A DNA stretch of 5,806 bases from Bacillota bacterium (GTDB taxonomy: Bacteria > Bacillota > Bacilli > Alicyclobacillales > Alicyclobacillaceae). Numbering within the stretch: the first letter of the stretch is position 1; every line of letters starts with the position of its first letter. The translations under genes were made by a program, and so were the position numbers. The notes below the pieces were generated by a model. The model had not been told where the DNA came from. It was given only the letters and a program-made list of their open reading frames with translations, and did no database searches. The stretch is taken from NCBI GenBank assembly GCA_021820805.1, contig JAKADF010000247.1, forward strand, positions 1 to 5,806. The letters are read 5' to 3'. Shown here piece after piece: positions 167-5,806 of the stretch.

Positions 167-200
167 TTACTGTGTTTATTATGAAATCAGAATATTGAAT

Positions 201-252
201 ATCACGGTGATGGAGCTCACCGTTAAACTCCGATAGGATAATGGCTCCTACA
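201..252 (+). promoter_or_regulatory. Fluoride riboswitch aptamer (crcB motif)
   Basis: Binds fluoride, as a Mg-F cluster, in the nascent mRNA leader and controls transcription of the downstream antiporter. The secondary structure matches the crcB motif. P1 pairs ACGGTG (204-209) with CACCGT (218-223) around a loop containing ATGGAGCT (210-217). An A-rich joint TAAAC (224-228) follows. A short hairpin TCC/GGA (229-231 with 236-238) has loop GATA. The conserved 3' segment TAATGGCTCCTAC (239-251) closes the aptamer. Loop bases GGAGC (212-216) are complementary to GCTCC (244-248), giving the diagnostic pseudoknot. From memory, the well-studied Bacillus cereus crcB aptamer has the same order, including GATGGAG in the P1 loop and TAATGnCTCCTAC at the 3' end. 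The 3' segment is also the 5' arm of the terminator below. Only a covariance-model score is missing. Confidence 0.94.
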
Positions 253-286
253 GATCATTACGATTTGTAGGAGCCATTAAATTTTA
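239..286 (+). terminator. Riboswitch expression platform: intrinsic terminator
   Basis: AATGGCTCCTACA (240-252) pairs perfectly with TGTAGGAGCCATT (266-278). With the T239-A279 pair and inner GATC/GATT pairing (253-256 with 262-265, one G.U), the stem reaches about 18 bp around a 5-nt loop (257-261). A modest T-rich tail (ATTTTAT, 281-287) follows. The 5' arm contains the aptamer's pseudoknot bases 244-248, so aptamer and terminator are mutually exclusive. This predicts termination without fluoride and read-through with it. The tail is shorter than in typical strong terminators, so some basal read-through is likely. Confidence 0.9.
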
Positions 287-430
287 TATGTGATTTAGGT
301 ACATATGTTGAAGTTTAAGCCCGAAAGTTGTGGACGCTTGTCCTGAATGGACATCCGCCTTGTACGACTTCCTTTCTTTCACATACGGTATTTCAAGTTG
401 CCAATTGGACTAGGCAGCAATGCCATATGG

Positions 431-436
431 AGGAGG
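431..436 (+). promoter_or_regulatory. Ribosome binding site that decides the antiporter start
   Basis: A perfect AGGAGG stands 8 nt before GTG at 445, the ideal spacing. The in-frame ATG at 427 lies upstream of this site and has no Shine-Dalgarno of its own. The in-frame TTG at 328 also lacks one. The GTG is therefore the best-supported start, and the apparent 39-residue N-terminal extension from TTG 328 is untranslated leader. Confidence 0.85.
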
Positions 437-444
437 AAAACGGG

Positions 445-1779
445 GTGTTTAGTTTAGCAGGGGCGGATTTGGCTAGATTTTTGTTTGCTATGGTTGTTCT
501 TTTGGCAGCTGCGAATTTACTTGGTTACGTAGCTGAAAGACTCACTATCCCACGGGTTATCGGGGAGGTTGCTGGGGGGCTCGTCCTCGGTCCTACGCTT
601 TTTGGCGCATTGTTTCCGTCAGCTTTTCACTGGTTGTTTCTTGGCTTTTCCTCGGAAGGCAGCTTGTTCGGGCTGATTTATCAACTTGGGATGATTTTGC
701 TTTTGTATACGGCTGGACTGAAGTTCCAATCCAGATTTGCAAAAACAGATATAAAAACAGGGATTGCGATCATTATCGGTTCCACGGTCATTCCATTCAT
801 AGTTGGCTGGCTTTCGACTTACTTGTTTAACCCCGCGCAATTCTTAGGTCCAGATCACAGTGTTGTTGCCTTGAAAATTATTGTCGCTATCTCGATTGCC
901 GTGACGTCAATCCCAGTCATCTCGAAAATATTTTCAGACCTTGGGATCATGCATTCTCGCTTCGCAAAAATTATTGTTGCCATCGCTGGTGTCCATGACC
1001 TTATCCTGTGGGTTGCGTTAGCGGTCGCATCAGGGATCGTTTCTGCACACGGTGCTGGCGGCATCAATGCCTGGGTGGTTTCCAAGAGCCTAGTCGTCAC
1101 CTTCGCATTCCTGTTTGTCTGCATAGCTGTAGTTCCCTGGGGTCTGAGGAGGATCACGTCAAAACGTGCGAATTTCTTGTTTCGTGCTTCCTTTTTGGGA
1201 TATTTCCTTGTCATCTTGTTTGCACTGGCAGATATTGCAGGGTATCTCCAAGTAGACGTGATGTACGGGGCATTGCTTGCTGTTATTGCAACTAAGTTTG
1301 CCTTGCCAGAGCACTTGTTCCATAGGCTTGAAAGGGGTGTAAATGAAATTTCCTTTGCGTTTTTCATTCCATTGTACTTCGCTATCGTTGGACTTCAACT
1401 GAATCTGTCGAAGGATTTTAGTCTCGGTTTCTTTGTCCTCTACCTGATATTTGCCACTATCGTACAAAGCGTTGTTGTCTATTTCACATGCAGACTTATC
1501 AAGACTGATAAGCTCACAAGCGTTAACTTTGCTGCAGCAATGAATGCCCGTGGTGGTCCAGGCATTGTGCTTTCTACTGTGGCGTATTCTCTTGGCATCA
1601 TCAACCAAGACTTCTTTGCCATTCTCGTCATGCTGGCACTTGTAACCTCCTGGATGGCAGGTTCGTGGTTACGGCATGTCCTGCGTAGTGGGAAGAGACT
1701 TATGCCTGGTGATGAACACCTGATCATTCAAAAGGCTCAAGAAGAGGTTCAGTTTGATTTGGCTCCAAGTGCAGAGTAA
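445..1779 (+). CDS. CPA2-family cation/proton antiporter under fluoride-riboswitch control
   Basis: Integral membrane monovalent cation/proton exchanger of the CPA2 (Na+/H+ exchanger, KefB/NapA-like) fold, 444 residues from GTG 445, with about 12-13 hydrophobic helices. Residue numbers count that start. Family hallmarks in order: PRVIGE (36-41) and GGLVLGP in TM2, LYTAGL (87-92), TSIPV (154-158) in the broken helix TM4, VHD (183-185) in the ion-site helix TM5, PLYFAIVGL (309-317), and NARGGPGIVLS (367-377). The usual CPA2 Asp-Asp pair reads His184-Asp185, keeping the universally conserved second Asp. There is no C-terminal TrkA-N/RCK or USP domain. The tail after the last helix is about 30 residues and charged, so ligand gating by NAD or glutathione is unlikely. 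The gene is alone on its strand behind the fluoride riboswitch. Na+/H+ antiporters are a known class of fluoride-riboswitch target, so a role in fluoride or acid-fluoride tolerance is inferred. The ion exchanged cannot be read from sequence. Confidence 0.93.
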   Translation: MFSLAGADLARFLFAMVVLLAAANLLGYVAERLTIPRVIGEVAGGLVLGPTLFGALFPSAFHWLFLGFSSEGSLFGLIYQLGMILLLYTAGLKFQSRFAKTDIKTGIAIIIGSTVIPFIVGWLSTYLFNPAQFLGPDHSVVALKIIVAISIAVTSIPVISKIFSDLGIMHSRFAKIIVAIAGVHDLILWVALAVASGIVSAHGAGGINAWVVSKSLVVTFAFLFVCIAVVPWGLRRITSKRANFLFRASFLGYFLVILFALADIAGYLQVDVMYGALLAVIATKFALPEHLFHRLERGVNEISFAFFIPLYFAIVGLQLNLSKDFSLGFFVLYLIFATIVQSVVVYFTCRLIKTDKLTSVNFAAAMNARGGPGIVLSTVAYSLGIINQDFFAILVMLALVTSWMAGSWLRHVLRSGKRLMPGDEHLIIQKAQEEVQFDLAPSAE

Positions 1780-1792
1780 AGCAGATAGAACG

Positions 1793-1830
1793 GGGGAGCA
1801 AACCGCCAAAAATATCGGAATTTGCTCCCC
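1793..1830 (+). terminator. Hairpin just after the antiporter gene, probable terminator
   Basis: GGGGAGCAAA (1793-1802) pairs perfectly with TTTGCTCCCC (1821-1830), starting 13 nt after the TAA. The 18-nt loop could close further through CCG/CGG (1803-1805 with 1816-1818). The position fits a transcript end. The following bases (ATAAGTATTA) are not a proper T tract, so it may act as a weak terminator or as an mRNA 3' stabiliser. Confidence 0.5.
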
Positions 1831-3300: not shown

Positions 3301-3314
3301 AAAGGATGATTAGC

Positions 3315-3626
3315 GTGCATCAAGTTCTTCAAGACCTTCAACAACTTCGTTCCCTTTGTCAACAACAAGTTCAAATTGAGCAACAGAGCCTCAATTTATG
3401 CAACCGAATCGGACAAACGATTTCACAAATACAAGCATCACAACAAATACCGTTTGTTGGCCCAAACCAAAGCGATCCCCAATTTGGCCAAGGTGCGCTT
3501 ACCATGGGTAGCAATATTAGCCCCACACAGGGTTACAATCCTTCAGTGCTGAACCAAGTTATGCAAGCTGAGAACCAATATCGACCCACACAGCCATTGC
3601 AGCCTTACGGTGGGCAGTGGCAATAA
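3315..3626 (+). CDS. Small Gln-rich protein of unknown function
   Basis: 103 residues from GTG 3315, chosen because AAAGGATGAT (3301-3310) is a good ribosome binding site about 8 nt upstream. An in-frame ATG at 3306 sits inside that site and would leave it no spacing. 26 of 103 residues are Gln, and there is no Lys. Residues 1-40 form a likely amphipathic or coiled-coil helix (VLQDLQQLRSLCQQQ onward) with Cys15 and Cys29 exactly two heptads apart. Residues 41-103 are a disordered-looking Gln/Pro/Gly/Asn tail ending in GGQWQ. There is no signal peptide or membrane segment. It has its own terminator and stands alone between two mobile-element relics. I do not recognise the family. The composition recalls small spore-coat or spore-surface proteins of Bacillales, which is only a guess. 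Confidence 0.72.
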   Translation: MHQVLQDLQQLRSLCQQQVQIEQQSLNLCNRIGQTISQIQASQQIPFVGPNQSDPQFGQGALTMGSNISPTQGYNPSVLNQVMQAENQYRPTQPLQPYGGQWQ

Positions 3627-3726: not shown

Positions 3727-4119
3727 GTTTCTTGAGTTATCCGTACCACAGCGATATAGGTATTGCATTTCGTTTAATTTGTAGTGAATTACACCTGACA
3801 TTAAACATTGTATTTGAAGCCGGATTTAACGAATTATTAGTTGCTTTTTTGCAAAAGGACAACGGATTTTTCTGGTAAAGCTCTTAGACGTATAAAAGCG
3901 GATCGCTAAGCTTTTTTCTGTATTTTGTCTGCGGTAGAGATCTCTTATTAGTTCGGGTTGGACCTATTGCTCAACTAGAATTAAGTACATTTAGCGTCGG
4001 ATGGCAAAATTACTCCCAAATCCGTAAATTCCATCATGGATGGAAATAAACACCAAGTCAAAATATATTCTTAAACGGAGTCAGCGCGGGAGCGTAATGA
4101 TGAAGGTACGTATTGGCGA
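3727..4119. other. Spacer without a supported gene
   Basis: No gene is supported. A terminator-like structure lies at 3877-3917: AAAGCT pairs with AGCTTT, an inner AGCG/CGCT hairpin forms (3897-3900 with 3904-3907), and a TTTTTT run ends it. A perfect 7-bp hairpin with a 3-nt loop, TTCCATC (4029-4035) with GATGGAA (4039-4045), stands shortly before the integrase relic. From about 4075 plus-strand frame 1 may already carry the degraded beginning of that relic. Confidence 0.5.
3877..3917 (+). terminator. Possible terminator-like hairpin
   Basis: AAAGCT (3877-3882) pairs with AGCTTT (3909-3914). An inner 4-bp hairpin AGCG-GAT-CGCT (3897-3907) fills the loop, and TTTTTT (3912-3917) makes the tail. 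No supported gene ends immediately upstream, so its target is unclear. It may be a second terminator behind the one at 3670. Confidence 0.35.
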
Positions 4120-4490
4120 AGAGAAGGAAGCGGCTACCAGAAGCACTTCCGTTATTTGTCGAATTGGATGTCAGATGCCCATCTTGAAACCAATGAAATA
4201 TCCCAAATTACAGCGCCAATTCTACGAGAATACATTTACTACTACTTAAGCCTCAAAAAAAGCCTTTTACGAAAACCATCTGGACAAGGCTGACGCCGAG
4301 AAAGCATGAATTGGATTAGCACCTAAAGCAATCACCGTTCGTTTGACTACATTGAAGGCAATGTTTCATTAGCAACAAGGGCTTACACCGACAGCCCTCG
4401 TAAAAAATTAAAAAAGCAGCGGGCGAACGAGGATGCCATTGAAGCTTTTACAGATGACCAATTGGACACACTTCTTGATCCAGTGTACCT
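4120..4490 (+). pseudogene. Decayed tyrosine recombinase (phage integrase/Xer-like), N-terminal part
   Basis: Relic of a tyrosine recombinase, seen only after joining frames. Frame 1 (about 4120-4290) reads GYQKHFRYLSNWMSD, then EISQITAPILREYI, the core-binding SAM-like domain of Xer/integrase proteins, and ends at TGA 4291. Frame 2 continues with FYENHLDKAD and AITVRLTTLKAMF, with TGA at 4307 and TAG at 4370. Frame 1 resumes (about 4372-4488) with RKKLKKQRANEDAIEAFTDD and QLDTLLDP, the linker into the catalytic domain. The catalytic Arg, His-x-x-Arg and Tyr region is absent, because recognisable sequence stops near 4490. The protein is therefore both frameshifted and truncated. No intact start, ribosome binding site or att site is visible. 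It indicates a past phage, genomic-island or transposon insertion between the antiporter and the YwaF-like gene. Confidence 0.82.
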
Positions 4491-4621
4491 ATCGGGGGTT
4501 TCGAGATTAGTGGAATCGCAGAACTCGTACAATTACAGTCTACTGGCTTTTTATTTTGGGGTTTTTTCCATAAACTGCATCATACGTTCATAATTCAACG
4601 TAGGTAAATTTATTATGTGCG
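4491..4621. other. Spacer between integrase relic and minus-strand unit
   Basis: Frame 1 of the plus strand stays open to TAA 4591 but no longer resembles a recombinase. An inverted repeat TACGTT (4583-4588) with AACGTA (4597-4602) lies about 20 nt beyond the stop of the minus-strand gene and could be its weak transcript end. No T tract follows it on the minus strand. Confidence 0.4.
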
Positions 4622-4978: not shown

Positions 4979-5743
4979 TTATTCCATACCCAACGTTTTC
5001 TGTTGCTTCAATCGATAAAACAGTTCCCAGGGCAGGTATAATGCAATCCAAACAATAAATACGACAAGGATCGCGATAAATATGTACCCGGGAGAGCCTA
5101 CCCATGAGGCGAAAACTTCAAGCAACGTACCTTCAGGCGGCTTTAAAAGATACAAGTAATTACTTCCAAGCAGGTGATCAACGACCAGGTCTATGATAAT
5201 GAGACTGGAAAACAAGCCGGAAATTTTATATAGGTTTCGAATTTGTGGTTTAAACTCACCTGTAATCAACATAAACAGAGGTACGTATACAATCAGAGAA
5301 TGAGTCACAATAAATATCAGAAATCCCCAACTGACAAAATAGTAACCTTGGGTATCGGGTGTAAGCATTGCAAGAAAGGCACCTGGCATTCCACATGCAT
5401 AGACAAACTCCATAAGAATGCGGTTTCGCGACAAAACCATTAATGGAATAACAATATACATCGTTCCGCAGAGTTGTAAAGGTAACTCGGTCATAACGCC
5501 AAAATGTCTAACCAAGAACAGCCAAAGCTCATTTACAATATTAAAGAAGGGGAGCAAAAATGCGAGTACAAGTACATACCTCGACCGCACTTTCTCATTT
5601 TTATCCTTAAACGCGATAGTGAGAAGGGTGTATACAGTTAAAAAGAAAAACAAAATCGTCAGATGCCTGGTAGAGAAGGCTGGCGTTCCAAATTGCCGCG
5701 GAACGACATTGTCGAATGAGAAGAAATATTTCAGCCCCTCCAT
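4979..5743 (-). CDS. YwaF-like integral membrane protein (TIGR02206 family)
   Basis: 254-residue polytopic membrane protein of the TIGR02206/YwaF family (related to TMEM164). ATG 5743 is preferred; AAGGA with GTGAT upstream resembles an extended Shine-Dalgarno. An in-frame GTG at 5752 would add 3 residues but lies too close to that site. About 6-7 helices: roughly 28-45, 56-78, 88-104, 112-127, 136-160, 175-191 and 218-240. Family signatures include FSTRHL (23-28), ELPLQLCGT (86-94), a His at 148 in THSLIVY, and SNYLYLLKPPEGTLLEV (194-210). Length is normal for the family. Its biochemical role in bacteria is not established. Human TMEM164 is reported as a phospholipid acyltransferase using a Cys/His pair, and Cys92 and His148 here are the candidates for that pair; this mapping is from memory and is inference. 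Alone or first in a minus-strand unit. No clear promoter is visible before the window edge. Confidence 0.9.
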   Translation of the reverse strand: MEGLKYFFSFDNVVPRQFGTPAFSTRHLTILFFFLTVYTLLTIAFKDKNEKVRSRYVLVLAFLLPFFNIVNELWLFLVRHFGVMTELPLQLCGTMYIVIPLMVLSRNRILMEFVYACGMPGAFLAMLTPDTQGYYFVSWGFLIFIVTHSLIVYVPLFMLITGEFKPQIRNLYKISGLFSSLIIIDLVVDHLLGSNYLYLLKPPEGTLLEVFASWVGSPGYIFIAILVVFIVWIALYLPWELFYRLKQQKTLGME

Positions 5744-5806
5744 ACTAATCACAATCCTTCAATCGTATGTGTGGATTAAAGAAAACTATTTATGTTTACT
5801 TAATTA
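5744..5806 (-). other. Upstream region of the YwaF-like gene
   Basis: This 63-nt AT-rich leader lies before the YwaF-like start on the minus strand. A TACGAT box about 20 nt before the start could be a -10, but no acceptable -35 sits 16-18 nt further upstream. The promoter may lie beyond the window. AAGGA followed by GTGAT, just before ATG 5743, is the ribosome binding site. Confidence 0.4.

What the first reader, a model, noticed from the sequence alone, without database searches (positions are those of the whole stretch)
201..1779. Fluoride riboswitch controls a lone CPA2 antiporter rather than a Fluc or CLC-F channel
The leader at 201-286 shows every diagnostic element of the crcB-motif fluoride riboswitch: P1, the GGAGC/GCUCC pseudoknot, the UAAUGGCUCCUAC 3' segment, and an overlapping terminator. 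The only gene it can serve is a CPA2 antiporter. Na+/H+ antiporters are a known but little-characterised class of fluoride-riboswitch target. The pairing suggests that this antiporter subclass works in fluoride tolerance, perhaps by exporting protons released when HF dissociates in the cytoplasm or by moving fluoride itself. This is the most functionally informative signal in the window.
Basis: partly seen in the sequence, partly recalled or inferred. Interest (0 to 1): 0.8.

Follow-up and report, generated by a model that had tools for sequence, protein, structure and literature searches.

The report
Fluoride-switched antiporter with sporulation promoter
A fluoride-sensing RNA switch sits in front of a lone ion-exchanger gene in an Alicyclobacillus-like bacterium, and between the two lies what looks like a conserved spore-formation promoter, so the exchanger appears to be wired both to fluoride stress and to sporulation.

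Summary
RF01734 matches 197-257 with 44.5 bits (gathering 34). An 18-bp terminator (239-279) shares its 5' arm with the pseudoknot: a transcriptional ON switch. It can serve only a 444-aa exchanger with the NapA fold. The pairing is a known kind (a review ranks Na+/H+ antiporters next after exporters) and recurs: the switch precedes orthologs at 16 of 33 loci L001-L033, and among 104 switches in 27 related genomes this exchanger is the second target after Fluc (17 switches, 15 genomes).

A sigmaK-type mother-cell promoter, AC-N16-CATAnnnTA (364-390), is conserved with or without the switch, shares its -10 with dpaA in the same genomes, and follows none of the 86 other switches. Its -10 lies in a hairpin predicted to mask the ribosome-binding site of read-through RNA more than of sporulation RNA. 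So the gene probably has two inputs. The exchanger is unusual: His-Asp in place of Asp-Asp, and Gln at or beside the place where about 95% of CPAs have Lys or Arg. Direct fluoride export is not supported; proton export is unlikely in an acidophile.

The parts
177..182 (+). TATTAT, putative -10 box of the vegetative promoter that makes the leader
   Evidence: TATAAT, TATGAT or TATTAT within 50 nt upstream of the aptamer in 11 of 17 antiporter leaders, against 17 of 800 random 50-nt stretches
197..257 (+). fluoride riboswitch aptamer (RF01734); P1 206-209/218-221, pseudoknot 212-216/244-248
   Evidence: 44.5 bits, gathering 34, E 3.9e-10; letters checked; aligned with 17 aptamers of relatives
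239..279 (+). intrinsic terminator hairpin, 18 bp, overlapping the pseudoknot strand
   Evidence: hairpin kept in the relatives with changed letters (by eye)
364..390 (+). sigmaK-type mother-cell promoter AC-N16-CATACGGTA
   Evidence: dpaA control; 0 of 86 other switches; 5 of 7 new loci
367..446 (+). predicted hairpin: 5' arm (367-392) carries the -10 element, 3' arm (419-446) the ribosome-binding site
   Evidence: folds; arm co-evolution over 27 leaders; pairing of 427-435 is 0.78 in read-through RNA and 0.18 in RNA begun at 397
429..436 (+). Shine-Dalgarno sequence GGAGGAGG
   Evidence: read from the sequence
445..1779 (+). CPA2-type cation/proton exchanger, 444 aa (GTG start); His184-Asp185 at 994-999, Gln341 at 1465-1467
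1793..1830 (+). hairpin after the gene (GGGGAGCAAA..TTTGCTCCCC), possible terminator without a clear T run

Best explanation
The locus is a CPA2-type cation/proton exchanger gene with two inputs. In growing cells a vegetative promoter makes a leader that terminates unless fluoride stabilises the aptamer's pseudoknot; fluoride lets polymerase read on into the gene. During sporulation a second promoter of the sigmaK type, downstream of the terminator, makes a short mRNA that bypasses the switch. The -10 of that promoter lies in the 5' arm of a hairpin that pairs with the ribosome-binding site, so long fluoride read-through RNA is probably translated weakly and short sporulation RNA more freely. 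The protein most likely exchanges a monovalent cation for protons without net charge and helps restore cation and pH balance after HF entry, next to Fluc, which removes fluoride. Shown here: the switch, its recurrence, the promoter motif and its specificity, and the fold. Inferred: switching, promoter use, translational masking, substrate and physiological role.
For: Switch. Recurrence: RF01734 over cut-off upstream of 16 of 80 ortholog loci, all 16 within L001-L033, and of 4 of 8 further loci (one of the 8, L255, repeats L012). Regulon: 104 switches over the cut-off in 27 of 30 genomes: CrcB/Fluc 35, this exchanger 17 (group of 18 less one unrelated CPA seen); CRCB confirmed on one representative. 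In print: the second of two tandem aptamers before the A. ferrooxydans ortholog (L004; LJCO01000051.1/58159-58221) is one of the switches that PMC13273304 re-tested by in vitro transcription with NaF and NaCl (I read that section; its percentages are in the figure and were not seen). Promoter: exact AC-N16-CATAnnnTA within 150 nt upstream in 13 of 34 leaders against 0.04 in shuffles, 7 or more of 8 letters in 24 of 34 against 1.28, with a peak at spacer 16. Before dpaA the -10 form CATAnnnTA/G stands in 25 of 29 cases against 24 of 580 random stretches. Behind the 18 antiporter-group switches the exact motif occurs 8 times, behind the others 0 of 86; in new loci 5 of 7 exact. Hairpin: own arms pair at -17.5 against -14.45 kcal/mol permuted, 0 of 5000 deals as strong, coding-region control p 0.88.
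Against: No expression data. The promoter motif was first seen in the same leaders on which it was then counted, so only dpaA, the 86 other switches and the 7 new loci are independent. The dpaA control bears on the -10, not on the whole motif: 16 nt upstream dpaA has CC in 21 of 25 cases and AC in 1, the exact AC form is found in 1 of 29, and with C alone spacers 15, 16, 17 and 19 all score high there (17, 22, 25, 21 of 29). 10 of 34 leaders fall below 7 of 8 letters, among them switch-bearing L002, L018 and L020, and new switch-bearing L251 and L256 lack the motif. The window's own hairpin arms rank only 11th of 27; only 11 of 26 leaders fold at z -2 or lower. If the hairpin really masks the ribosome-binding site, the fluoride route would make little protein, which sits badly with a fluoride-tolerance role. 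The link between hairpin strength and switch (p 0.006) ignores kinship. PMC517825 gives the B. subtilis sigmaK gap as 14-16 between a 5-nt and a 10-nt element (passages); the form AC-N16-CATAnnnTA is recalled.
Confidence: 0.68

Rival explanations
1. An ordinary member of the known class 'fluoride riboswitch plus Na+/H+ antiporter': fluoride is the only relevant input, and the CATA element and hairpin are parts of an extended RNA leader rather than a promoter.
For: The association is known (PMC11139923, passages). The leader folds (z -3.3, 1 of 200 shuffles as good) and its arms co-evolve, as an RNA element would. The -35 letters differ from those before dpaA.
Against: In L010, L012, L014 and L019 the motif is kept at 7 of 8 letters although their arms pair poorly (rank 18 to 23 of 27). 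Bacillaceae-type orthologs without switch have it exactly in 5 of 29 cases against 0.09 in shuffles, and the -10 is that of dpaA. Fixed spacing to an upstream AC has no place in the hairpin.
Confidence: 0.2
2. The exchanger itself exports fluoride or HF, as a third kind of fluoride exporter.
For: It is the second commonest target of the switch in this group, and in 4 of 15 genomes no switched Fluc was found. Position 8 seems to lack the usual Lys/Arg, so the site is not standard.
Against: Asp185 of the cation site and the NapA fold are kept; the HD site is shared by orthologs without a fluoride switch; 11 of 15 genomes also have a switched Fluc.
Confidence: 0.06
3. The leader is a second riboswitch or RNA thermometer that opens the ribosome-binding site on a second signal (pH, cation or heat), so fluoride and that signal act as an AND gate.
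For: The masking hairpin co-evolves and is stronger in leaders with a fluoride switch (p 0.006, kinship not corrected).
Against: An Rfam scan of 270-470 gave only three matches far below their cut-offs. Predicted masking of the window's site is unchanged from 37 to 60 C (0.78). In the alignment of 18 leaders the invariant columns before the start codon are those of CATA and the T of its TA (leaders chosen for having CATA).
Confidence: 0.1

Closest known systems
Fluoride riboswitch (crcB motif, RF01734)
   Same: Aptamer, pseudoknot and overlapping terminator; a tandem aptamer before the A. ferrooxydans ortholog was tested in vitro in PMC13273304
   Different: About 160 nt and a second, sporulation-type promoter lie between terminator and gene; PMC13273304 says that most start codons lie 28 nt after the termination site (passage)
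Riboswitch-associated Na+/H+ antiporters (Baker et al. 2012, cited through PMC11139923; C. difficile CLC plus NhaP-type pair in PMC11477304)
   Same: A cation/proton exchanger under a fluoride switch
   Different: Stands alone, is of NapA-like type with an HD site, and has a second, developmental input
NapA (5bz2) and KefC (8bxg)
   Same: NapA fold; conserved Asp of the ion site; broken helices at 152-156 and 365-370 in the model
   Different: His184 in place of NapA D156 or KefC Q155; Gln341 at or next to the place of NapA K305 or KefC K307; no RCK domain found
sigmaK-dependent mother-cell promoters (PMC517825, passages)
   Same: CATAnnnTA -10, as before dpaA in the same genomes (25 of 29), with C 16 nt upstream
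   Different: AC at that place, where dpaA has mostly CC; lies downstream of a riboswitch terminator, its -10 inside a hairpin that would mask the ribosome-binding site
T4 gene e type layout (recalled, from no call)
   Same: Late promoter inside the 5' arm of a hairpin, so that only short RNA is translated
   Different: A bacterial chromosomal gene with a riboswitch on the long transcript; translation not tested

Membership tests
Fluoride riboswitch RF01734 | covariance score over gathering | tested here: met
   44.5 against 34 bits
Fluoride riboswitch RF01734 | P1, pseudoknot and overlapping terminator | tested here: met
   letters; terminator
Fluoride riboswitch RF01734 | fluoride-dependent read-through | not testable with these tools
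   only a relative's element has been assayed in print
CPA superfamily (PF00999) | Pfam score over cut-off and NapA fold | tested here: met
CPA2 as modelled by NCBIfam TIGR00932 | score over curated cut-off 238.3 | tested here: not met
   107.6 bits, E 7.6e-31: related, but below the model's cut-off
Electrogenic NapA/NhaA-type CPA2 | Asp at position 6 | tested here: not met
   His184; definition from PMC6181914 passages
Electrogenic NapA/NhaA-type CPA2 | Lys at position 8 | tested here: not met
   Gln341 by the family alignment, Ser342 by the NapA alignment; neither is Lys or Arg
Kef-type K+/H+ exchanger | QD motif and RCK domain | tested here: not met
   HD; only PF00999 found in 444 aa; definition from PMC11150392 passages
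Fluc (CrcB) or CLC-F | CRCB or CLC domain | tested here: not met
   only PF00999 found
sigmaK-type promoter | CATAnnnTA -10 and AC at fixed spacing | tested here: met
   364-390; controls; the AC and its spacing are recalled, not taken from a call
sigmaK-type promoter | mapped start and dependence on sigmaK | not testable with these tools
   no expression data

The most novel reading that the evidence does not exclude
Fluoride sensing and spore formation are joined at one exchanger gene in acidophilic spore formers. The switch releases a long mRNA that is held translationally idle by a hairpin, while the sigmaK promoter hidden in that hairpin gives the active mRNA, so fluoride primes or supplements a protein needed in the mother cell or spore. 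The exchanger belongs to a CPA group with a rearranged ion site (His-Asp with Gln at position 8), possibly suited to low pH.
Probability: 0.3. Interest if true: 0.75.

Novelty: new variant of a known kind. Interest (0 to 1): 0.55.

Why it matters
Antiporters have been listed as fluoride-riboswitch targets since 2012 (cited through PMC11139923), and I met no worked-out role for them in the papers I saw. Here one exchanger can be followed through relatives with and without the switch, and a second, developmental input appears in both. That gives a direct test of whether fluoride, sporulation or both call for it. The ion site also offers a testable exception to the Lys/Arg rule at position 8: within this family positions 6 and 8 vary together (ED-K, QD-E, HD-Q).

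Tried and rejected
Idea that the HD site marks fluoride-linked exchangers: rejected. All 116 of the 120 listed homologs that were aligned (420 aa or longer) carry HD, as do all 33 loci L001-L033, with or without switch, and 31 of 45 readable loci of L034-L080, none with a switch over the cut-off (L046 and L049 gave no full frame).

Idea of a second known riboswitch between terminator and gene: an Rfam scan at E up to 10 of 270-470 gave three matches far below their cut-offs. RNA thermometer: predicted masking does not change between 37 and 60 C.

In-frame N-terminal extension from TTG 328 (some relatives have longer frames too): judged chance by eye, as spacer lengths differ and the better start sits behind a Shine-Dalgarno; not tested formally.

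Viral contigs: 17 stretches matched a pattern, none encodes a relative. Plasmids: 221 records with a match, one at 80% or more, on an A. fastidiosus plasmid, the same record as L008.

One search read half of the dpaA loci on the wrong strand and one search stopped with an error; both are superseded, which leaves out L214 (a partial match), hence 29 of 30. (a germination family) was run as a sporulation check and not used further. GerN: the literature search was seen as a listing only; the protein was not compared with GerN.

NapA K305 is opposite Ser342, not Gln341, in the HMMER alignment, next to a two-residue insertion; the ED group puts its Lys in column 341. Position 8 is therefore either 341 or its neighbour; no distance was measured in the model. 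The 396 proteins come mostly from three searches whose queries were of HD, QD and ED type, so their proportions mean nothing.

Papers: PMC11139923, PMC7266159, PMC5533749, PMC8814607, PMC2864571, PMC517825, PMC6181914, PMC11150392, PMC10043782, PMC11477304 and PMC11751092 were read as passages around search terms; PMC13273304 one section and passages. Baker 2012 and Stockbridge 2012 are not held and are cited through others. A search for 'fluoride riboswitch' with 'sporulation' found 2 papers, neither about a fluoride-switched sporulation gene in the passages shown. One for 'fluoride', 'CPA2' and 'antiporter' found 10, of which I saw titles and the starts of abstracts. I can say no more than that about what is in print.

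Full report
What is there. The window is a 5.8-kb contig from an Alicyclobacillus-like bacterium; its genome is not held. The nearest named orthologs in the genome scan are from A. ferrooxydans and A. tolerans (86%). The fluoride riboswitch is genuine: RF01734, 197-257, 44.5 bits against a gathering score of 34, with P1, pseudoknot and terminator in place. Because the terminator's 5' arm holds the pseudoknot's 3' strand, ligand binding should block termination: an ON switch. A -10-like TATTAT (177-182) ends 14 nt before the aptamer; such boxes occur within 50 nt in 11 of 17 antiporter leaders against 17 of 800 random stretches.

How common the pairing is. A scan of public genomes found 448 relatives of the exchanger, of which the best 80 were kept. 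Rfam scans of all 80 loci found a fluoride switch over the cut-off upstream of 16, with 17 aptamers because L004 has two in tandem. All 16 lie among the 33 nearest loci; the 47 others, from Bacillaceae, Paenibacillus or distant groups, have none (L074 has only 154 nt upstream). On a tree of 45 proteins the switch needs at least 4, most simply 6, changes, and the window sits in a clade of four that all have it (97/92). So the switch was gained or lost repeatedly.

The regulon. Of 30 genomes behind these loci, 29 had an RF01734 match at E 0.001 or better and 27 one over the cut-off, with up to 10 over the cut-off in one genome. The 27 are mostly Alicyclobacillaceae or Bacillota MAGs; one is a Bacillus. 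I took the 104 over-cut-off switches, fetched their surroundings and grouped the first downstream frame: CrcB/Fluc 35 in 22 genomes, the exchanger group 18, a TerC-like group 11, an NADHdh/HycD-like group 10, then MutS-like, enolase, sigma factor and others, and 2 without a frame. One of the 18 is a different CPA, leaving 17 in 15 genomes. Pfam on one representative each supports CRCB, NADHdh, MutS_V, Sigma70 and enolase; TerC came out just below its cut-off. 11 of the 15 genomes with a switched exchanger also have a switched Fluc; unswitched Fluc genes were not sought. So the exchanger is a frequent additional member of the fluoride response. A review (PMC11139923, passages) states that Na+/H+ antiporters are the commonest riboswitch-linked class after the exporters; that part is known.

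What lies between switch and gene. The coding start is 187 nt behind the aptamer; the median in 16 switched antiporter leaders (L027 left out) is 188.5 nt, against 75 nt for Fluc (the Fluc figure uses the longest frame and is rough). The space holds a conserved element: AC, 16 bases, CATAnnnTA; in the window AC 364-365 and CATACGGTA 382-390. This is the form I recall for sigmaK promoters; PMC517825 gives a 5-nt and a 10-nt element 14-16 apart (passages). In 34 leaders (33 loci and the window) 13 match all eight letters against 0.04 in shuffles (maximum 1), and 24 match seven or more against 1.28; of spacers 10 to 23, 16 gives 13 and no other more than 4. In 29 Bacillaceae and Paenibacillus-type orthologs without the switch 5 match exactly (0.09 expected) and 10 match seven or more (1.71 expected); in 18 from distant groups none matches exactly and 2 match seven (0.56 expected).

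Controls outside the discovery set. Before dpaA, a sigmaK gene in B. subtilis (recalled), the same genomes have the -10 form CATAnnnTA/G in 25 of 29 cases against 24 of 580 random stretches, and C-N16-CATAnnnTA in 15 of 29 against 6 of 580. But the letters 16 nt upstream are CC there (21 of 25), whereas the antiporter leaders have AC (17 of 27), and because that region is C-rich dpaA does not fix the spacing. So dpaA supports the -10, not the AC. In the 320 nt behind the aptamer the exact motif follows 8 of 18 antiporter-group switches and 0 of the 86 others. In 7 new non-redundant loci it is exact in 5, three of them without a switch (one, L254, is close to L016).

The hairpin. In 26 leaders folded, the ribosome-binding region is paired with mean probability 0.38 to 1.00, and less so in RNA begun at the promoter in 24 of 26; only 11 of 26 fold at z -2 or lower against simple shuffles. 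Over 27 leaders with a CATA element, a leader's own two arms pair at -17.5 kcal/mol on average; with arms dealt anew the mean is -14.45, and none of 5000 deals reached the observed value, while the start of the coding region as a control gave p 0.88. The window's own arms rank 11th of 27, and six leaders without a switch rank 18th or lower. Leaders with the switch have the better ranks (16 against 11 leaders, p 0.006, kinship not corrected). In the window the site is paired 0.78 in read-through RNA and 0.18 in RNA begun at 397. The simplest reading is that RNA arriving from upstream is translated poorly and RNA begun at the sporulation promoter more freely.

Mechanism. HF enters at low outside pH and releases fluoride and protons inside (recalled). 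Fluc can let fluoride out. In an acidophile the pH gradient drives protons inward through a cation/proton exchanger, so I do not think it exports the protons set free by HF. More likely it moves K+ or Na+ out, and the small inward proton flow lowers the pH difference that traps fluoride, or it corrects cation balance. In sporulation the same exchanger may serve the mother cell or the spore, as GerN-type exchangers do in germination (recalled). These last steps are inference.

Verdict. What I did not find described in the papers I saw are the sporulation-type promoter inside the leader, its specificity for this gene among fluoride-switched genes, the masking hairpin and the HD-Q site.

Noticed in passing
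L004:2624-2687 and 2735-2797; further pairs: Tandem fluoride riboswitches: eight arrays among the 104 switches (seven pairs and one triple, G022:C209:33866-34170; less than 250 nt apart), three of them in G009. A literature search for 'fluoride riboswitches' with 'tandem' listed 10 papers; the passages of one name no tandem fluoride pair.
   Followed up: partly
L178 (G024:C61:1400-1476): A fluoride switch before a different, distant CPA with a TD pair at the ion site.
   Followed up: no
fluoride-switch cluster 2 (11 genomes): A TerC-like membrane protein (26.7 bits, cut-off 27.8) is the third commonest target of the fluoride switch in this group.
   Followed up: no
L008 (plasmid) and L032 (chromosome), A. 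fastidiosus: Two copies in one genome: the plasmid copy has the fluoride switch, the chromosomal one does not; both have the exact sigmaK-type motif.
   Followed up: partly
window 4041-4600 +: Frame-broken stretch that reads like the N-terminal part of a tyrosine integrase (by eye); described only.
   Followed up: no
window 4979-5752 -: TMEM164-like membrane protein (PF14808, 136.2 bits; TIGR02206, 119.8 bits).
   Followed up: no
window 3306-3626 +: Gln-rich 106-aa frame without Pfam or NCBIfam match.
   Followed up: no
G008:C2:22260-38299 (L139): One 137-kb replicon carries a cluster of fluoride switches (6 over the cut-off and 1 below it within 16 kb), like a fluoride-resistance island.
   Followed up: no
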